Below are positions 2,612 to 36,939 of a DNA stretch of 64,000 nucleotides, piece by piece. Made by a program: the position numbers and the translations under genes. The notes under the pieces were generated by a model. It was not told where the DNA came from. It was given only the letters and a program-made list of their open reading frames with translations, and ran no database searches. Numbering within the stretch: position 1 is the first letter of the stretch; every line of letters begins with the position of its first letter. Source of the DNA: Bacteroidetes bacterium UKL13-3 (GTDB taxonomy: Bacteria > Bacteroidota > Bacteroidia > UKL13-3). The stretch is from NCBI GenBank assembly GCA_001602415.1, contig CP012155.1:186001-250000 (forward strand), given 5' to 3'.

Positions 2612-4069
2612 TTATTCATTGCTCAATCCGGCTGCGGTAATGGTTGAACGCTCTTGATAATTATCGTAATCCGTATTGATATCCCACAAGTTGTGGCCTG
2701 CATTGTTTACAATATTATCGGCTGCCAATAATCCCATTAAAATACTATGATCTTGATTGTTGTATTTAAAAGCTCCGTAACGTCCAATTACACTCAATCC
2801 ATTAATACCACTTAAGTAGTTTTCAATGGGTTTAAGTATATCCTTATAATTATTGCTGTAAACAGGATAACAACGCGGGATTTTGTATACATGCCCTTCC
2901 ATAATAGGAGCGCCTTTGTTTAAACCAGTTTTAATTAATTCTTTCTTCCCAAGCTCAATTAACTCTGCATCACTCATATTCCACATTGCATCTTCATCGT
3001 AGCACCAATATTCCATAGCCACAATGGTTGTTTCTTTTCCCATTGTAATTTCGGGAACATAGTTGCGGAAATTGGAGATACGTCCGGTTTCAACATCTGC
3101 CGAGTGAACGTACAACCAGTTATCAGGGAACAAATCTTTCCCATCAATATGCAGGTAAACCAGGATGGTATTGCGGAAGGTAAGTTTGTTTGCAAAGTCA
3201 ACAATTTGTTGCGGAATGCCCGGTAATTGTTTCACCATAACGGTAAATGGCATGGTGGAAACTACATGGTCGTAATGAATTACTTCTCCGCTCATTAATT
3301 CAATAGCGTTTGCTGTGTCACCTTCTTTCAATACACGTTTTACTGGCGAATTGCATAGCACTTTTCCGCCATTCGCATCAACAAATGTTTGCATGCGTTC
3401 GTAAATCATACCTGTTCCACCGGTAGGATATGCAAATTGATCGACCAATGTTTTATGTTTGGTTCCACCTATACCCAATGCACTTTTCATGGCTTCTCCA
3501 AGCGAGAATTTTTTGATGCGTTGAGCGGCAAAATCGGCATCCAACTCATTACACTTTATACCCCACAATTTCTCGGTATAGGTTTTAAAAAATATCTCGT
3601 ACAAACTTTTTCCAAAACGATTGGTTACCCAGCTTTCAAATGTTCCATCTTGTTTGGTGGGAAATAGTTTTTCTTTGAAATAACTCAATACGCAAACTGC
3701 CGAGGTAAACAAGCCCAATTTGCTCAAAGCATCAAAGGCTTTTACGGGGTAGAAGTAAAAATTGTTTTTATAGTAGATACGTGTTAAGCGGTCCACCATA
3801 CGGTAATCCCTACCTGCCACTTCGAGCCACAATTTATTTACACGGGTATCATCGCTAAAAAAACGATGCGGACCTAAATCTACTTTTTGTCCCCACAAAT
3901 CCAGTGTTTTAGCCAATCCACCTACTTGTGGTGCGGCTTCATATAAGTGAACTTCAACGCCTTGCTTGGCTAATTTATAAGCACAGGTAATGCCAGCAGG
4001 TCCTGCACCAATTACAGCTACGCGTTTTGTTTGCTTGGTTGTATTCATAAAATCACGCAAGGATAACAT
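2612..4069 (-). CDS. FAD-dependent oxidoreductase, UDP-galactopyranose mutase/protoporphyrinogen oxidase-like
   Basis: The 485-residue protein starts with a Rossmann dinucleotide motif (AVIGAGPAGITCAYKLAK, about residues 18-35), followed by YEAAPQVGGLAKT, typical of the amine-oxidase/UGM flavoprotein fold. It has no signal peptide and is probably cytosolic. ATG codons at 4069 and 4048 are both possible; the upstream one has the A-rich leader common in this phylum. It is divergent from the membrane glycosyltransferase gene at 4274, with a 204-base shared intergenic region, so a role in surface sugar metabolism is plausible but unproven. The substrate cannot be read from sequence; a UGM-like mutase or an unrelated flavin oxidase are both possible. 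Confidence 0.8.
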   Translation of the reverse strand: MLSLRDFMNTTKQTKRVAVIGAGPAGITCAYKLAKQGVEVHLYEAAPQVGGLAKTLDLWGQKVDLGPHRFFSDDTRVNKLWLEVAGRDYRMVDRLTRIYYKNNFYFYPVKAFDALSKLGLFTSAVCVLSYFKEKLFPTKQDGTFESWVTNRFGKSLYEIFFKTYTEKLWGIKCNELDADFAAQRIKKFSLGEAMKSALGIGGTKHKTLVDQFAYPTGGTGMIYERMQTFVDANGGKVLCNSPVKRVLKEGDTANAIELMSGEVIHYDHVVSTMPFTVMVKQLPGIPQQIVDFANKLTFRNTILVYLHIDGKDLFPDNWLYVHSADVETGRISNFRNYVPEITMGKETTIVAMEYWCYDEDAMWNMSDAELIELGKKELIKTGLNKGAPIMEGHVYKIPRCYPVYSNNYKDILKPIENYLSGINGLSVIGRYGAFKYNNQDHSILMGLLAADNIVNNAGHNLWDINTDYDNYQERSTITAAGLSNE

Positions 4070-4273: not shown

Positions 4274-7231
4274 ATGAAAAAGCAGAAACAACCTAACATC
4301 CAAGCCGAACCCCAAGTTATTTCTTCCAACGATTTATTATGTGTGGTGCATGCTAACGCAAACAACATTGAGTTTATCGGTAAAAATATTGCCTCAGTTA
4401 TAAACCGAGCGAAGGGTGAAGTAGAACTGGTAATTGTGAGTAAACTAAAGATTGCTGGTTTGTTAGAGCAAAAGGATATTGCCGAATTGGTTACAAAAAA
4501 TCGTTGCAATGCAGTGTTGTATGGAGATGAATTATTAGCCACAATAGAAGGCAGTAAAGCACAATGGATATATGTTGCTGGCGAAACGAGTTTGAATATT
4601 TCTTCGGTGATACATTCGTTTCAATTCAATAAAAAAGTAATTACGGAAATAGGTGTGTATGTTGGCGAGTTCAATAAACAATCGGGACCGTTGCAAACAC
4701 CTTTTGCTGTTAAAGCTAAAAAGTGGGGGTATAATTTTTGGGGACAATTATTCATGCCACTTCCTATAAAAGACTACACACATAATTTTGTATTTTTTGA
4801 TAAACAAACGGTAGCGCAATATTTCTCGTCAACATATACCAACCAATTATCTTTGTTGTGTAAGGCAGCATACGAATCCGTTCCGTTTCATAACTATACA
4901 CTCACACAAAAAGAAAATGTACCCACTTTCAATCGGTTAGGAAGCATTGTTAAAACAGGCATAACATCTCGTTACAATTGGTTTGTTGGAGAGGCATTCA
5001 ACAAACCACACACAACCTCCAGCTCGGGCAATCATCCTTTTACACGATTGGCTTTTTTATTGGTTGTATTGGCAGCTTTGATTTTGTTGCCTCGTTTAAG
5101 TTTTGATTACGGTATTAGCTGGGATGCTAAGCGACACAATATTTATGGTTATGATATGCTTAAATATTTTGAAACCGATGGTGAGGATAAAGCTGCGTTA
5201 AGCGAAACATCGAGCATGCAGGAGTTTAGGTATTATGGAGAGCATTTTAATGTTATTTCGGCATGGCTCAATACGCATGTGAAACTTTGGGGGGAATTTG
5301 AAACGCGTCATTTCTTAAACGCTTTATATGGTTTTTTAGCAATGTTGTTTGCCGCATTGGCCGCTAAAGAAATAGGTTCGTGGCGAAGCGGTTTAATCGC
5401 TTTTGTACTCATATTTTTGAGTCCGGTATTTTTTGGGCATAGCATGAACAACCCAACAGATATTCCATTTGCAGCAGGTTGTGCCATGGCATTTTATTAC
5501 CTCATTAAGGTGCTTAAAAATTTACCATCACCTAAATTTACGTATTTGTTATGGTGCGGTGCAGGTATTGGTATGGCTATTGGTTCGCGTATTGGTGGTA
5601 TTGTGTTTTATGCCTACACGGGTTTGTTTATGGCTATCAATTTAATTTGGTATGCGCGTAAAAATAGTTTTGCCGAAGCTACAAAGCTATTGTTCCCTTA
5701 TTTTATTGCAGGAACAACGATTGTATTGGTCGCTCATTTTGTGGGCATATCGTTGTGGCCATTCGGACAAGAAGCCATCATGTCGAATTGGCTTGTGGCC
5801 CTCAAAAAATCAACCAGCGCAGAGTTCTTTACATACAACCATGAGTTGTTTGAAGGTGCGCGAATGTATATGGCCAATGTGCCGTGGTATTATTTACCAA
5901 AGTTTATCATCATCAATGCTCCCTTATCGGTATTGGTTGGTTTTGTGTTGTTGTTGGTATTGTTTTTTACATGGAAGAAAAATTTTGCAACAACCTATCC
6001 ATACTTATTGGCTGTATTGTTCGTATTTATTTTTCCAATTGTGTATGCCGAAGTTCAAAGCATGTATTATTACAATGGATGGCGCCACTATATGTTTACC
6101 TATCCACCAATGATTGTGCTTACGGCATTGGGTTGGGAGTCGTTATTTAGGTTGAGCAAAAACACAATTATACATGTTGTGGTAAGTGTTGTGTTGCTTG
6201 GTTTTGTATCGTTACCTGCCATGTGGATGGTAAAAAACCATCCGAATGAAGTTGTGTATTATAATGAACTTGTTGGTGGAACAAAAGGTGCGTATGGCAA
6301 TTATGAAATGGATTATTATTCCAACTCGTGCAGGGATGCAGCCGAGTGGATTGCCAACCAACACCCAACGGGAAAACTTGTTGTGGCTATAAATAATGAA
6401 CCGCTAACAGGAGCATATTACGCGCAAAAAATTAATCCCGATATTCAATTTCAATGGGTGCGCGAATATGAAGAAGGAAAACCATTTTGGGATTATGCCA
6501 TTTACACCTCACGTACCTATTCAAAAAATGAGTTATTGAATGCAGGTTTCCCGCCAAAAGGAACCGTTTACGAGGTAAAAGCCGATGGTGTTCCAATATG
6601 TGTTGTGGTAAAGCGTGATGAATATTTTATGCCGCTAGGGTATAAAGCCATTGAAGCCAATCAGGCAGATTCAGCTATTTATTATTTTACTAAAGCAAGC
6701 GAGTGGAACCCGATGGATGAAGAAGCTTTTCGGATGAAAGGAATGGCATTGTTTGTTGCCCAAAAGTTTGATTCGGCTATTATTGCCTTAAATGAATCAA
6801 TAAGGATTTTCCCCGAAAATTATGTGGCATACGATAATCTAGGTCAGGTATATAATGCCAAAAAAGAATTGGATAAAGCATTAGCGTGTTTTAAAAAATC
6901 AACGGAGTTTAAATACAATTATACCGATGCTTATTTCCATGCTGCAGGGTTGGAATACACGCGCAATAATTTTGGAGGAGCGATCATTCATTTTGAACAC
7001 GCATTAAAGCGAGGAGGAAGCAATGTTCCTCAGATATATTATTACCTAGGTTTATCATACATGAACAATAACTCGCTTAAAAAAGCAGAAGAAAATTTAA
7101 TACTGGCAGTAACGCTTGATGGTAATAATGCCATGGCATTCCGTGCATTGGCGGAGGTGTTTAACAAAGAAGGAAAAACAGATCAGGCGCAGCAATGCAT
7201 GCAAAAGTACCAATCGTTGGGCGGGCGTTAA
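4274..7231 (+). CDS. Multidomain membrane glycosyltransferase (GT39-like) with C-terminal TPR repeats
   Basis: The product is about 985 residues. Residues 1-235 look like a degenerate soluble GT2-type domain (LLCVVHANANNIEFIGKNIASVI). A membrane domain with about ten hydrophobic segments follows (about 255-660) and carries GT39-like signatures such as ISWDAKRHN and HSMNNPTDIPF. A soluble stretch leads to at least four TPR units (about 790-985). GT39-type enzymes transfer sugars from polyprenyl-phosphate donors outside the inner membrane. I chose the ATG at 4274; a TTG at 4268 would add two residues. Its stop overlaps the stop of the convergent porin gene. Acceptor and sugar are unknown. Confidence 0.82.
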   Translation: MKKQKQPNIQAEPQVISSNDLLCVVHANANNIEFIGKNIASVINRAKGEVELVIVSKLKIAGLLEQKDIAELVTKNRCNAVLYGDELLATIEGSKAQWIYVAGETSLNISSVIHSFQFNKKVITEIGVYVGEFNKQSGPLQTPFAVKAKKWGYNFWGQLFMPLPIKDYTHNFVFFDKQTVAQYFSSTYTNQLSLLCKAAYESVPFHNYTLTQKENVPTFNRLGSIVKTGITSRYNWFVGEAFNKPHTTSSSGNHPFTRLAFLLVVLAALILLPRLSFDYGISWDAKRHNIYGYDMLKYFETDGEDKAALSETSSMQEFRYYGEHFNVISAWLNTHVKLWGEFETRHFLNALYGFLAMLFAALAAKEIGSWRSGLIAFVLIFLSPVFFGHSMNNPTDIPFAAGCAMAFYYLIKVLKNLPSPKFTYLLWCGAGIGMAIGSRIGGIVFYAYTGLFMAINLIWYARKNSFAEATKLLFPYFIAGTTIVLVAHFVGISLWPFGQEAIMSNWLVALKKSTSAEFFTYNHELFEGARMYMANVPWYYLPKFIIINAPLSVLVGFVLLLVLFFTWKKNFATTYPYLLAVLFVFIFPIVYAEVQSMYYYNGWRHYMFTYPPMIVLTALGWESLFRLSKNTIIHVVVSVVLLGFVSLPAMWMVKNHPNEVVYYNELVGGTKGAYGNYEMDYYSNSCRDAAEWIANQHPTGKLVVAINNEPLTGAYYAQKINPDIQFQWVREYEEGKPFWDYAIYTSRTYSKNELLNAGFPPKGTVYEVKADGVPICVVVKRDEYFMPLGYKAIEANQADSAIYYFTKASEWNPMDEEAFRMKGMALFVAQKFDSAIIALNESIRIFPENYVAYDNLGQVYNAKKELDKALACFKKSTEFKYNYTDAYFHAAGLEYTRNNFGGAIIHFEHALKRGGSNVPQIYYYLGLSYMNNNSLKKAEENLILAVTLDGNNAMAFRALAEVFNKEGKTDQAQQCMQKYQSLGGR

Positions 7232-29876: not shown

Positions 29877-30007
29877 AATAAAAAAGATTACCCAAAACTC
29901 TCAAATAAATACAGAAGAAATGCAATCTTAAAATGAGCGAATTGTGGATATACTATTGATATGTAAATAAAAATTAGACACTTTTAGATGAATAGTTTGG
30001 AGGTAAT

Positions 30008-30048
30008 AATTTGACAAATACGGAATCAGATTCCGTATTTGTCAAATT
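30008..30048. repeat. Left 41-base palindrome
   Basis: Arms 30008-30027 and 30029-30048 around A30028 are perfectly complementary. It begins 21 bases beyond the stop of the ATPase gene and could also fold as a hairpin terminator. Confidence 0.9.
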
Positions 30049-30069
30049 ATTTTATGGTTTAAAGAGAAG

Positions 30070-31230
30070 TTAAAATTTGATGTTATTAATCTCTTTCCAG
30101 TTTAGAATATCAATATTATCTATGGCTGAGGATTTGCCAGTATAAATGACATAAGCGTTTTTAGTTGTCGATTTTATTTTTTTCCAATAATTAATACCTT
30201 TTATATAATCGCTATTAAATGTGGTGGCAGTTTTAATTTCAATTGGAATAACCTGCGAAGATTGTTCTATTAAAACGTCAATCTCGTTTCCGGTTCTATC
30301 GCGCCAAAAAAACAAGTTAGTTCGTTGGCCATTGTTAAATCTTTTTTTGAGCAACTCGAGAATGATAAGATTTTCAAACAAAGATCCTCTGAGTGGATGG
30401 GTGTTTACATGGGATTCTGATTCCAATTCCAACAAAGAGCAACACAACCCTGTATCATAAAAATAGAGTTTAGGCATTTGGGTGAGTCTTTTTCCTAGGT
30501 TATTATAGAATGGGTGCAGTCTAAACGCAATAAAACTTGCTTCTAAAATACCGAACCAACTAATAATTGTTTTTTGATCTACACCAGTATCATTGCTAAT
30601 GGAGGTGTAATTTACCTCTTGCCCCACACGAGTGGCACAAATTTTCAGGAAACGCTGAAACAGCCCTAGGTTTGCTATGTTTTTTATTTGTCTTACATCA
30701 CGTTCAACATAAGTAAGCAGGTAGTTAGGGTAATAATCGGTGGGGTTTATTTTGCGATCATATAAACGAGGATAACCTCCATTTAGAAGTAATTTATTCA
30801 AACTCTGTTTGGCATATTTACTCGTTTCCAACTCTTCGAAGCTAAACGGTAGGAGGTGAATAAAAGCAATACGACCAGCCAATGTTTGCGATACACTTTT
30901 GAGTAACAATAAGTTTTGAGAGCCCGTTATTATAAACAATCCTACTTTTTTGGGTTGATCATCAATAACTCCTTGCATGTAGGAAAGGAGTTGCGGAACA
31001 CGCTGTATTTCATCAAAAATAGCTCCTGTTTTATACCTACTTAAAAATGCACGAGGGTCTTTAGTAGCCAATAAAACATTGTCTTGGTTTTCGAAACTGA
31101 TATAGGGCTTTTTAGGAAACAGTTCTTTTGCAAGGGTAGTTTTTCCCGATTGGCGAGGTCCCAATAAACCGATTGCCGGAAACTTTTTGGCAAGTTGTTT
31201 TATTTTAACTGTGGCAGCTCTTTGTATCAT
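30070..31230 (-). CDS. AAA_14/DUF4143 ATPase with PD-(D/E)XK nuclease-like C-terminus
   Basis: The 386-residue protein has a Walker A motif GPRQSGKT (residues 24-31), Walker B with IFDEIQ (Asp73-Glu74) and a sensor-like IITGSQN. The C-terminal DUF4143 part contains GNEIDVLIE (Glu316, Asp318) followed by IPIEIK (Glu331, Lys333), the core pattern of PD-(D/E)XK nucleases. Proteins of this architecture are widespread, vary greatly between strains and have no settled function. The gene stands between two exact inverted palindromes 16 bases before its start and 21 bases after its stop, and interrupts a housekeeping neighbourhood. It looks horizontally acquired. Confidence 0.88.
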   Translation of the reverse strand: MIQRAATVKIKQLAKKFPAIGLLGPRQSGKTTLAKELFPKKPYISFENQDNVLLATKDPRAFLSRYKTGAIFDEIQRVPQLLSYMQGVIDDQPKKVGLFIITGSQNLLLLKSVSQTLAGRIAFIHLLPFSFEELETSKYAKQSLNKLLLNGGYPRLYDRKINPTDYYPNYLLTYVERDVRQIKNIANLGLFQRFLKICATRVGQEVNYTSISNDTGVDQKTIISWFGILEASFIAFRLHPFYNNLGKRLTQMPKLYFYDTGLCCSLLELESESHVNTHPLRGSLFENLIILELLKKRFNNGQRTNLFFWRDRTGNEIDVLIEQSSQVIPIEIKTATTFNSDYIKGINYWKKIKSTTKNAYVIYTGKSSAIDNIDILNWKEINNIKF

Positions 31231-31246
31231 ATTTCAAATATACAAC

Positions 31247-31287
31247 AATTTGACAAATACGGAATCTGATTCCGTATTTGTCAAATT
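31247..31287. repeat. Right 41-base palindrome
   Basis: Arms 31247-31266 and 31268-31287 around T31267 are perfectly complementary. It is the exact reverse complement of the left copy. Its edge is 16 bases upstream of the ATPase start codon, overlapping where a promoter or leader would be. Confidence 0.9.
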
Positions 31288-31309: not shown

Positions 31310-31336
31310 AAAAGTCGAGTGATTAGCTCGACTTTT
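31310..31336 (-). terminator. Intrinsic terminator of aspS
   Basis: Arms AAAAGTCGAG and CTCGACTTTT with a 7-base loop. On the minus strand the stem runs straight into eight T residues, starting 22 bases after the aspS stop. Confidence 0.88.
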
Positions 31337-33929: not shown

Positions 33930-34407
33930 AACTGCGCATGTATTTGAGGCATATTGCACTCAATCTAAAAGCTAAGCTTCTGGGCAGGAAAAATAGCCTC
34001 CACCTTTTACTGGTTTTACAACTTGGGTAATTCATAGTGGGGGGTATACCTCCACCAAACAATATGTAAATGATTAAAATGCATCATGAGCACATTCATT
34101 TGATTTTTAGTAAATGATTAAAACCAAATAGGAATCATGTATTACCTATAATAAATGGGTTAACAGCTATGATTTTGGATTTGAAACTTATGAAGTTGTT
34201 GGCTACAAAGGAAACGTAACTCTGCATCTCCTTAATGTTCTTTTTATATAACGAGTTAAGGCTTTCGGATTTGTTATAATCAAGAACTTTTATTTTAAAA
34301 ATATCTACAATTAGGTACTTTTTATAAATTTACATTAAAACGACATATGTATTCTTAAAATTGTCTTAAAATTCCTAATATTGCTAACTTCAAACAATAT
34401 GCGACTC
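33930..34407. other. Intergenic region before the sugar-amidination island
   Basis: No intact gene is seen. Bases 34190-34225 are 28/36 identical to 36987-37022, beyond the other end of the three-gene island. In one frame this stretch reads FETYEVVGYKGNVTL before a stop, and looks like a decayed coding fragment. A TATAATAAAT element precedes both copies (34147 and 36962). Confidence 0.45.
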
Positions 34408-35007
34408 ATGGTTTCTTTACTTAATTGTGGTATAGGTAATATTTCTTCAGTACATGAGTGTTTGTCTGACTTAGGAATGACCATTAATATGGTTCAAACA
34501 AAAGAGGATATTGCACCCAATTCAGTTTTAGTTATTTGCGGTGTCGGCAGTTTTGATGAATGTATTGAAAGACTTGAGGTGTTAGGTTTATTAAACACCA
34601 TTCATGAAATAGTGAATGTCGGATCTCAAAAAGTTTTGGGCATCTGTTTAGGTATGCAAATACTCACCTTATCTAGCGAGGAAGGAAATAAAACTGGAAT
34701 AGGATATTTTCCAGTAAGAGTAAAACGCTTAACCGCGAAAAAAGGACTGCCAGTGCCTCATATTGGTTGGAACACTATTCAAGAGAAATTAAAATCACCT
34801 TTAATTTCATTGTCTGAAGCCGACAGGTATTATTTTTCTCATCAATATGCAGTAGTTGACAGTTGCGCCTATACTGCTGGGGTTACACAATATGGAGAAA
34901 TTTTTAGTAGTATGTTATTTAAAGACAAAACGCTTGGTGTTCAATTTCATCCTGAAAAAAGTTACGGAGCTGGAAAAAAGTTATTGTATGAATTTTTGTC
35001 AAACTAA
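34408..35007 (+). CDS. hisH: HisH-type glutamine amidotransferase of sugar amidination
   Basis: The roughly 199-residue class I glutaminase has the nucleophile Cys in GICLGMQIL and the His-Glu pair in GVQFHPEKS. It starts MVSLLNCGIGN, aligning with the usual HisH start; ATG 34399 and TTG 34381 are alternatives. It would release ammonia from glutamine. No other histidine-biosynthesis gene is nearby. The neighbours are a HisF-like protein and a sugar amidotransferase, so it most likely serves acetamidino-sugar synthesis, as HisH2 does in the Pseudomonas O-antigen pathway, not histidine synthesis. Confidence 0.85.
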   Translation: MVSLLNCGIGNISSVHECLSDLGMTINMVQTKEDIAPNSVLVICGVGSFDECIERLEVLGLLNTIHEIVNVGSQKVLGICLGMQILTLSSEEGNKTGIGYFPVRVKRLTAKKGLPVPHIGWNTIQEKLKSPLISLSEADRYYFSHQYAVVDSCAYTAGVTQYGEIFSSMLFKDKTLGVQFHPEKSYGAGKKLLYEFLSN

Positions 35008-35014
35008 ATAATTT

Positions 35015-35746
35015 ATGATTCTAAAAAGGCGGATTCCAATCATACTTGTATTAAACGAAAGAGCGGTTGTTACAACAAACTTTAAAAATCCTTATTATGT
35101 TTCTGACCCTGAAAATTTGATAAAAATATATAGTGAGAAGGAGGTGGATGAGCTTATGGTATTGCAGATTAATGAACGATTTGGATTGTCGAATAATTTT
35201 GTCTATCTGCGTAAATTGGCGAAACTGTGTAAAAGTCCTTTATTGATGGGCGGAGGTATAAACAGTATAAAACAGATAGAAATGCTTATTGAGGCAGGAG
35301 TGGAGCGAGTTCTTTTGGGTAAACATGCCATACAATCTCCTCAATTTTTGAAAGAATCGGCTAAAAAATTTGGCAGTTCAAGTCTTACCGTGAATATTGA
35401 TTATACAGGCGGTATTGATTTGAAAACACGTCAGTGTAAATATAGTACAGGTAGCAATTTACTTCAAATGGCAATTCAAATGCAGGATGCAGGTGCCGGA
35501 GAAATTGTTTTTACCTCTGTTGACCGCAATGGAACCCGATATGGATATGATAGGCAATTGATTGATGATATTTCTACCCATCTCAACGTTCCAGTTATAT
35601 TAAATGGAGGTTGTGCCAGCAAACAATCAATGAATGATATTTTGTTTCATCCGGATATTGCTGGAGCAGGGGCATCAACAGCGATTTTTATAAGGGAGCC
35701 AAATCAAGCAGTTTTACCTGTTTATCCAACCAATGTTTCTAAATGA
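35015..35746 (+). CDS. hisF: HisF-like ammonia-channel subunit of sugar amidination
   Basis: The 243-residue (beta-alpha)8 protein keeps HisF landmarks such as LMGGGIN, the ligand loop VNIDYTGG and VILNGGC. The first catalytic Asp of true HisF (CLDVKDGRVVKG) is replaced: the strand reads IILVLNERAVVT. It therefore probably does not cyclise imidazole glycerol phosphate but passes ammonia to the next enzyme, as proposed for HisF2 proteins of O-antigen clusters. It begins 7 bases after hisH and overlaps the next gene by 4 bases. Confidence 0.85.
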   Translation: MILKRRIPIILVLNERAVVTTNFKNPYYVSDPENLIKIYSEKEVDELMVLQINERFGLSNNFVYLRKLAKLCKSPLLMGGGINSIKQIEMLIEAGVERVLLGKHAIQSPQFLKESAKKFGSSSLTVNIDYTGGIDLKTRQCKYSTGSNLLQMAIQMQDAGAGEIVFTSVDRNGTRYGYDRQLIDDISTHLNVPVILNGGCASKQSMNDILFHPDIAGAGASTAIFIREPNQAVLPVYPTNVSK

Positions 35747-36939
35747 AAGCAGAGCAAGTTTATAATCAGTATGCAGCATTGTTTCCCTTAAACGGTTCAA
35801 AAAACAATTTCCCTTATCAGCAGTGTAGCATCAGTGTAATGGATAATATTGCAGATAGTAATATTCGATTTGATAAAGATGGAATGTGTAATTATTACCA
35901 CGAATATCAACGCGCAGCAAAAAAGTTATTGCTTAAAGGCGAGGCTGGTAATTTAAGATGGAAACAAACTGTCGAAAAAATAAAACGGGATAAAGGTGGA
36001 AATAAATATGATTGTCTAATTGGGTTAAGCGGGGGAATTGATAGCTCTTACGTTTGTTTATTGGCTAAAGAGGAAGGACTTAATCCTCTCATATTACATT
36101 TTGATAATACATGGAACTCTGAACAATCTATTCGTAATGTAGAGAGTTTATTAGATACGCTAACATTCGACTATGAAACACACGTAGTAGATAATAAAAC
36201 ATTTGAAGCTTTGCAAAAGGCTTACATTAAAAGTTCAGTTGTTGATTTGGATATTATTACAGATCATGCAATTTGGATATTGCAATACAGGATTGCTTTG
36301 AAAAAAAACATTAAGCATGTTATTAGCGGTTCAAATTTCTCAACTGAAATGGTGCTACCTCCTGATTGGTATTTTAATTGGAAGGATCAGAAAAATATGT
36401 TGTCCATAATAAAGCATACCTACCCCAATTCTATTGATTTATCAACGTTCCCAACAGCTTCTTTTAAAGAGATTAATCAATTTGCTAAAATTACCAATCT
36501 CGCAATACACAGTCCTATTGATTGGTTGGATTTTGACAAGGGTAAAGTACAATCGGAGATTGAGCGGAAGTTAAATTGGAAAGCATTTCAGGGAAAACAC
36601 TATGAATCCATTTGGACTCGATTTTATCAATGTTATATACTTCCTGTAAAATACAATATTGATAAACGAAAAGCACATTTATCAAACCTTATTTATTCAA
36701 ATCAACTTACAAAGGAAGAAGCAATTGAGATATTAAAGGAACCATCTTACTCGCGGGAATTACTAAAAGCAGATATGGATTTGATTTTAAGCAGATTGGA
36801 ATGGACACATGATGAGTTTGAACATATAATGAAAATGCCGGTGCGAAAACACACGGATTTTGCCTATCAGCGAACGCTCAGAAATCAATTCAAACCAATC
36901 TTTAACCTTGCACGAGCGATCAAAAATAGTTGTTATTAG
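35743..36939 (+). CDS. N-acetyl sugar amidotransferase (WbpG/PseA type)
   Basis: The 398-residue PP-loop enzyme has the ATP-pyrophosphatase motif in LIGLSGGIDSSYVCLLA (about residues 90-105). An early Cys-containing segment (QQCSISVMDN) and a later GSNFSTE are typical of the N-acetyl sugar amidotransferase family. It converts an acetamido to an acetamidino group on a nucleotide-linked sugar, using ammonia made by HisH and passed through HisF. ATGA overlap with hisF shows coupling. No other surface-sugar genes adjoin it, so the sugar scaffold is made elsewhere. Confidence 0.85.
   Translation: MKAEQVYNQYAALFPLNGSKNNFPYQQCSISVMDNIADSNIRFDKDGMCNYYHEYQRAAKKLLLKGEAGNLRWKQTVEKIKRDKGGNKYDCLIGLSGGIDSSYVCLLAKEEGLNPLILHFDNTWNSEQSIRNVESLLDTLTFDYETHVVDNKTFEALQKAYIKSSVVDLDIITDHAIWILQYRIALKKNIKHVISGSNFSTEMVLPPDWYFNWKDQKNMLSIIKHTYPNSIDLSTFPTASFKEINQFAKITNLAIHSPIDWLDFDKGKVQSEIERKLNWKAFQGKHYESIWTRFYQCYILPVKYNIDKRKAHLSNLIYSNQLTKEEAIEILKEPSYSRELLKADMDLILSRLEWTHDEFEHIMKMPVRKHTDFAYQRTLRNQFKPIFNLARAIKNSCY

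What the first reader, a model, noticed from the sequence alone, without database searches (positions are those of the whole stretch)
30008..31287. ATPase/nuclease gene bracketed by two exact 41-base palindromes
Seen: two perfect 41-base palindromes (arm AATTTGACAAATACGGAATC) lie 16 bases before and 21 bases after a single AAA_14/DUF4143 gene. Their centre bases (A and T) make them exact inverted copies, with no similarity beyond the edges. Known: DUF4143 ATPases are patchy in distribution and functionally unexplained. The C-terminus here has a PD-(D/E)XK core (Glu316, Asp318, Glu331, Lys333). Inference: this could be a one-gene mobile element that recognises and cuts its own hairpin ends, or a selfish or toxin-like cassette controlled by paired palindromic operators.
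Basis: partly seen in the sequence, partly recalled or inferred. Interest (0 to 1): 0.85.

Follow-up and report, generated by a model that had tools for sequence, protein, structure and literature searches.

The report
Nuclease gene bracketed by its own palindromes
A single ATPase-nuclease gene of unknown function sits between two copies of a DNA palindrome that relatives of the same protein also carry, at a fixed spot in their promoters and often behind the gene too; it looks like a small travelling, self-regulated cassette of the toxin or defence type, and the palindrome gives a testable clue to what this very common protein family binds.

Summary
Two perfect palindromes (41 bp; the left one extends to 47) bracket one AAA_14/DUF4143 gene and occur nowhere else in the genome. 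The link is general. A palindrome scan of about 85,000 species gave 68 loci: 52 with a DUF4143 gene beside the palindrome, 16 with the palindrome alone. Two other DUF4143 genes of the same genome (about 28% identical) are bracketed by different palindromes of their own. The upstream copy has fixed promoter geometry (centre 38 bp before ATG, a Bacteroidota -7 box between), and its symmetry is kept by compensatory changes. The downstream copy is lineage-specific. Gene plus palindromes comes and goes as a unit: empty sites, solo palindromes, at least six locations in one family. Other members are flanked by duplicated ends of neighbouring genes (16/134 against 2/164 control ORFs), and relatives hold AbiEii, nucleotidyltransferase or VapBC genes in the same slots. 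Best reading: a mobile, self-regulated nuclease cassette (PADLOC candidate PDC-S01) whose protein probably recognises the palindrome. Binding, cutting and self-mobilisation are not shown. I found no report linking this family to palindromes.

The parts
30070..31230 (-). AAA_14/DUF4143 gene, 386 aa: AAA+ ATPase, winged-helix region, C-terminal PD-(D/E)XK-type domain; PADLOC PDC-S01
   Evidence: Pfam PF13173 E 5e-27 and PF13635 E 2.8e-52; PDC-S01 E 5e-98; AlphaFold2 models pLDDT 92.8 and 93.7; fold matches; invariant Walker and E-x-D...E-x-K residues
31247..31287 (.). upstream palindrome, 41 bp, probable operator; centre 37 bp before the ATG
   Evidence: symmetry kept by compensatory change in relatives
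31235..31242 (-). TATATTTG, match to the Bacteroidota -7 promoter consensus TAnnTTTG, between palindrome and ATG
   Evidence: sequence; the box sits at the same place, about 12 bp before the ATG, in 19 relatives; consensus from own knowledge
30005..30051 (.). downstream palindrome, perfect 47 bp with the same 20-base arm, 18 bp after the stop
   Evidence: paired copy present around orthologues at other sites

Best explanation
This is a horizontally mobile, one-gene cassette of the restriction-modification / toxin-antitoxin / defence type. Its product is an AAA+ ATPase joined to a winged helix and a PD-(D/E)XK nuclease, and the product most likely binds the cassette's own palindrome. The upstream copy lies in the promoter and most likely works as an autorepressor operator. 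The downstream copy is a second cognate site at the other border; in this clade it travels with the gene and can remain as a solo palindrome when the gene is lost. Shown: association, symmetry, promoter geometry, gain and loss of the unit, nuclease residues and predicted fold. Inferred: binding, autoregulation, nuclease activity, and the biological role (self-maintenance or anti-phage defence). How the cassette enters new sites is unknown; in relatives entry is sometimes accompanied by duplication of a neighbouring gene end.
For: Palindrome with DUF4143 at 52 of 68 loci across phyla. Free position 8 paired in 81 of 85 against 28.5 expected, with three pair types; same letter up- and downstream in 18 of 19. 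Palindrome centre 38 bp (IQR 37-39) before ATG with a -7 box between. Two paralogues with their own, different palindromes on both sides; another type in a random draw. Strong upstream palindromes in 10 of 38 randomly drawn genes against 0 of 37 control ORFs. Similarity between eight sites ends at the palindrome's outer edge. Empty sites, solo palindromes, at least six locations. Gene-end duplications 16/134 against 2/164, p = 1.1e-4. Slots shared with AbiEii, nucleotidyltransferase and VapBC genes. Nuclease and ATPase folds.
Against: No binding, cleavage or expression data. Many DUF4143 genes, notably those of 425 aa or more, have no strong palindrome. No target duplication at the window locus. 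The aspS-linked sites could be one old association with later rearrangement rather than repeated insertion. Shared slots with toxin-like genes rest on a few cases. The defence role of PDC-S01 is itself a prediction.
Confidence: 0.55

Rival explanations
1. A self-mobilising one-gene transposon. The AAA+ ring pairs the two palindromic ends and the PD-(D/E)XK domain cuts them, or their extruded hairpins, moving the unit to new sites.
For: Two-sided palindromes move with the gene; empty sites without palindrome; solo palindromes; nuclease and AAA+ domains in one protein.
Against: Upstream-only palindromes in many relatives; one copy of each type in the genome; duplications beside relatives are irregular in length, 28-447 bp, and most sites have none; upstream position explained by the promoter.
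Confidence: 0.22
2. An ordinary autoregulated gene. Only the upstream palindrome matters, as operator; the downstream copy is a by-product of local duplication, and movement is done by other agents.
For: Fixed upstream geometry; upstream-only arrangement in plasmid relatives; integrase next to the gene in Agrobacterium/Rhizobium plasmids.
Against: Downstream copies recur in unrelated subfamilies with different palindromes and stay symmetric and matched to the upstream copy.
Confidence: 0.15
3. The palindromes are ordinary transcription terminators that insulate the gene.
For: Both fold as strong RNA hairpins, -27 and -30.4 kcal/mol, and score in a terminator pattern scan.
Against: Only 5 G-C pairs in a stem of about 20; the upstream copy lies at a fixed distance in the promoter; its sequence is conserved across phyla with one gene family; aspS already has its own terminator-like hairpin at 31310-31336.
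Confidence: 0.05

Closest known systems
PDC-S01 (PADLOC phage-defence candidate), AAA_14/DUF4143, COG1373
   Same: The window protein matches this family from end to end; single-gene unit, ATPase fused to a PD-(D/E)XK domain (PMC12988326)
   Different: The cognate palindromes, their promoter geometry and the flanking gene-end duplications are not described in anything I could find; a defence role is not demonstrated here or, by the cited paper, for most such candidates
Restriction-modification units that insert with long target duplication (Nobusato et al. 2000, cited in PMC3874152)
   Same: Small nuclease-bearing units inserted at gene borders with duplicated gene ends
   Different: Single gene, no methyltransferase; palindromes at the borders; the window locus itself has no duplication
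Archaeal ATPase PABY2304 (PDB 2qen) and STAND ATPases
   Same: ATPase plus winged-helix part superposes, Z 15.3, rmsd 3.2 over 244 residues
   Different: Only residues 1-268 align; the C-terminal nuclease-like domain is extra
Can2/Cdn1 CRISPR ancillary nucleases and McrC (C-terminal domain only)
   Same: Nuclease-like fold, Can2 Z 10.0, rmsd 2.6 over 115 residues
   Different: No CARF sensor domain was found in the Pfam scan; low sequence identity
Palindrome-ended mobile units such as IS200/IS605 and RAYT-REP (from own knowledge)
   Same: Single-gene units with hairpin-forming palindromes near both ends
   Different: The only gene between the palindromes is AAA_14/DUF4143, not a HUH/Y1 transposase; the palindrome has not multiplied in the genome

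Membership tests
AAA_14/DUF4143 (PF13173 + PF13635) | Match over the curated cut-offs for both domains | tested here: met
   94.9 bits (cut-off 27) and 177.1 bits (cut-off 28.1)
PDC-S01 defence candidate | Match to the PADLOC model | tested here: met
   E 5e-98 over residues 1-368
PDC-S01 defence candidate | Protects the cell against phage | not testable with these tools
   needs phage challenge
PD-(D/E)XK nuclease superfamily | E-x-D...E-x-K core in the right fold | tested here: met
   E316, D318, E331, K333 invariant in 34 relatives; fold match of the domain alone
PD-(D/E)XK nuclease superfamily | Nuclease activity | not testable with these tools
   needs purified protein
Autoregulatory operator | Dyad-symmetric site at a fixed place in the gene's own promoter | tested here: met
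   centre to ATG median 38, IQR 37-39, -7 box between; symmetry test
Autoregulatory operator | Bound by the gene's own product | not testable with these tools
   needs gel shift or footprinting
Unit inserted with long target duplication (restriction-modification style) | Duplicated target sequence flanking the unit | tested here: not met
   not found at the window locus; present at 16 of 134 other DUF4143 genes against 2 of 164 controls
DNA transposon / insertion sequence | Known transposase (DDE, HUH, serine or tyrosine type) | tested here: not met
   the only gene between the palindromes matches AAA_14 and DUF4143 only
DNA transposon / insertion sequence | Target-site duplication of constant length | tested here: not met
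   none at this locus; irregular 28-447 bp at relatives
Type II toxin-antitoxin module | Two adjacent genes, toxin and antitoxin | tested here: not met
   single ORF between the palindromes
Intrinsic terminator | G+C-rich stem followed by a T run | tested here: inconclusive
   pattern hits, but 5 G-C pairs only

The most novel reading that the evidence does not exclude
A new kind of minimal mobile element: one AAA+/winged-helix/PD-(D/E)XK protein recognises palindromic sites on both sides of its own gene, brings them together and cuts them, and inserts the unit at gene borders with variable-length target duplication, leaving a solo palindrome on exit. Many genes now listed as defence candidates would then be mobile elements.
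Probability: 0.2. Interest if true: 0.92.

Novelty: new variant of a known kind. Interest (0 to 1): 0.72.

Why it matters
DUF4143/PDC-S01 genes are among the commonest candidate defence genes of prokaryotes: about 29,500 found in bacteria and 10,000 in archaea, described as the fourth most common system (PMC12988326). Their function and ligand are unknown. A cognate palindrome that varies by subfamily, sits at a fixed promoter position and moves with the gene gives a specific DNA to test for binding, cutting and autoregulation. Gene-end duplications and slots shared with AbiEii, nucleotidyltransferase and VapBC genes suggest that these genes spread like restriction-modification units, which bears on whether they defend the cell or themselves.

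Tried and rejected
Terminator reading: weak, see rivals. Known RNA family: only sub-threshold microRNA-like chance hits. Viral vehicle: no exact match of the palindrome pattern in IMG/VR; 13 phage records carry distant DUF4143 relatives. Palindrome as a pre-existing target that insertion duplicates: empty sites of the second cassette have no palindrome. Empty site for the third cassette (L027): its flanking genes are not adjacent in relatives, so no test. Empty site at rpsU (G008/G015): flanks 45 kb apart in G007, no clean test. Methylobacterium and Algoriphagus solo palindromes: each shared with one relative and decaying; other relatives too diverged to date the arrival. Moraxella plasmids: the gene is carried on different backbones, but no gene-less counterpart with both flanks was found. 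A first control run for direct repeats had an indexing fault (46 false hits at locus ends) and was repeated correctly. Literature searches returned nothing linking DUF4143 with palindromes or inverted repeats; Furuta et al. 2010 is not held. In the structure search of the full-length model the nuclease part was hardly tested, so it was modelled and searched alone.

Full report
What is there. Window 30070-31230 (minus strand) encodes a 386-aa AAA_14 + DUF4143 protein, also a strong match to PADLOC PDC-S01. A perfect 41-bp palindrome lies 16 bp upstream of the ATG (31247-31287), and a perfect 47-bp palindrome with the same 20-base arm (30005-30051) lies 18 bp after the stop. The arm occurs exactly nowhere else in the 3.24-Mb genome.

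Is it a property of the gene? In 64 genomes of the same family, 18 carry the palindrome. Every palindrome retrieved there lies beside a DUF4143 orthologue; where both sides of the gene were in the retrieved stretch, both had it, with one exception (L012). A scan of about 85,000 species for the half-fixed pattern CAAATNCGGAATNNNATTCCGNATTTG found 68 loci in many phyla; 52 have a DUF4143 relative at the palindrome, some only about 30% identical to the window protein. The other 16 are solo palindromes with no detectable gene remnant apart from marginal hits; for a few of them the flank held on one side is short. Some of the 68 loci are the two ends of one element.

Selection on symmetry. Among 85 distinct palindromes, position 8 from the centre was left free by the pattern. 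It is paired in 81 (28.5 expected), with A-T, T-A and C-G all common. Pairing at the free outer positions continues to about 19 bp and then falls to chance. In two-sided elements the letter at position 8 is the same upstream and downstream in 18 of 19. The dyad is maintained and the two copies stay matched, although shared descent explains part of the second figure.

Generality. The genome has three further DUF4143 genes. Two of them (L025, L027; 27-28% identical to the window protein) are bracketed by palindromes of quite different sequence; the L025 palindrome occurs only at that gene. In a random draw of Bacteroidota, 10 of 38 DUF4143 genes under 425 aa have a strong palindrome within 130 bp of the start, against 0 of 37 control ORFs; five have matching up/down pairs against one control, and the longer class has no strong palindrome (0 of 10). 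One drawn gene (L255) has yet another 41-bp palindrome abutting the ATG, with a 40/41 copy 13 bp after the stop. Alphaproteobacterial and Moraxella plasmid relatives have only the upstream copy, abutting or close to the start codon. The upstream site is therefore the commoner feature; the downstream copy is lineage-specific.

Promoter geometry. The centre of the upstream palindrome is 38 bp before the ATG (median, IQR 37-39). A TAnnTTTG box (Bacteroidota -7 consensus, own knowledge) lies in the 45 bp before the ATG in 20 of 35, against 21 of 115 other ORFs, and a TAnnTTTA variant is visible in several of the rest. Downstream distances vary from 20 to 134. This is the arrangement of an operator over the upstream promoter element. 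Autoregulation is inferred, not shown.

The protein. AlphaFold2 (pLDDT 92.8, pTM 0.91) gives an ATPase, a helical region that I read as a winged helix (helices 188-200, 208-215, 219-231, strands 235-238 and 254-257) and a C-terminal alpha/beta domain. The first two match Pyrococcus PABY2304 (2qen, Z 15.3, 244 residues, rmsd 3.2) and STAND ATPases. The C-terminal domain alone (pLDDT 93.7) matches Can2 (Z 10.0, 115 residues, rmsd 2.6), Cdn1 and McrC. E316, D318, E331 and K333 are invariant in 34 relatives, as are the Walker residues. A DNA-binding nuclease is the natural reading; activity is untested.

Mobility. Related cassettes (80-93% identical proteins) occupy at least six places: aspS-spmAB, aspS-pth, aspS with other neighbours, rpsU, and others. 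The aspS cases may be one old association with later rearrangement. Between eight sites, similarity falls from about 0.9 in the palindrome to about 0.3-0.45 outside it. The aspS-spmAB slot is empty in G030, with 120 bp between the genes. At aspS-pth, G056 has the full cassette, G060 a single decayed palindrome, G059 a half arm, and G062 nothing of it. For the second cassette (L025), seven relatives have the two flanking genes adjoining with no palindrome, so insertion brought both palindromes with it.

Target duplication. Outside the upstream palindrome, 16 of 134 DUF4143 genes are flanked by direct repeats of 28-447 bp, most of them copies of a neighbouring gene's end; 2 of 164 control ORFs show this (p = 1.1e-4). 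One of the 16 (L066) is the palindrome itself. Examples: a serB-like 5' end of 447 bp at 94% (L283), an HTH gene of 374 bp at 94% (L072), a priA-like 3' end (L089) and an FAD-oxidoreductase 5' end (L258); these gene names are my reading of the translations. Restriction-modification units are known for 'insertion with long target duplication' (Nobusato et al. 2000, cited in PMC3874152). The window cassette itself shows no such repeat.

Company. The slot of the second cassette holds AbiEii with DUF6922 in G055; aspS-spmAB holds a nucleotidyltransferase in G047 (DUF6036, E 6e-5, just under the cut-off); in Agrobacterium/Rhizobium plasmids the place behind a tyrosine integrase holds the ATPase in some and VapC with VapB or Phd in others. 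This suggests, without proving it, that these cassettes belong with the toxin/defence class.

Verdict. A self-regulated, horizontally mobile nuclease cassette with cognate palindromes explains the data best. Operator function upstream is well supported by geometry. Why a second copy sits behind the gene, and how the unit moves, are open. Self-mobilisation by the protein remains possible but is weakened by the many one-sided relatives, by single copies per genome and by the irregular duplications.

Noticed in passing
L137 (G062), 3602-3664 and 3721-3846 (minus strand): At the cassette-free aspS-pth site the 3' end of aspS is present twice (a 21-residue second copy), possibly the scar of a lost insertion.
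   Followed up: partly
L152 (G037), 4371-6159: A second copy of the last 41 codons of aspS stands about 1.7 kb beyond aspS, with an acetyltransferase-like and a lipoprotein-like ORF between the copies, so another small insertion seems to have duplicated the same gene end.
   Followed up: partly
L080, 170-320 and 1550-1790: Three successive, diverged copies of a histidine-kinase-like C-terminus, one before and two after a DUF4143 cassette, as if the site had been duplicated repeatedly.
   Followed up: partly
L184 1979-2023 and L185 1981-2021 (Methylobacterium): Solo palindrome of the DUF4143 type near secA in a genome with no DUF4143 match; a decayed copy stands at the same place in a related species.
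   Followed up: yes
L064 2236-2272 and L084 7846-7878: Solo palindromes beside the same TerC-like and neighbouring genes in two relatives, in genomes with two and no DUF4143 matches.
   Followed up: partly
own genome 2185838-2186980 (L026) and 2187178-2187408: The fourth DUF4143 gene of this genome stands next to rpsU, where the window-type cassette sits in G008 and G015; it has tandem 'TTGACGGAATTTAATATAATTCAGTCA' repeats upstream instead of one palindrome.
   Followed up: no
L097, L102, L119, L122, L126, L128: Some DUF4143 genes have doubled palindromes (two dyads in tandem or in mirror order) by the gene.
   Followed up: no
genome G075 (genome of L076): 40 DUF4143 matches in one 4.2-Mb Bacteroidales genome, an unusual load.
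   Followed up: partly
window 34381-36939: A HisH-like, a HisF-like and an ATP-dependent amidotransferase-type gene in a row, perhaps a surface-sugar locus; judged from the translations only.
   Followed up: no
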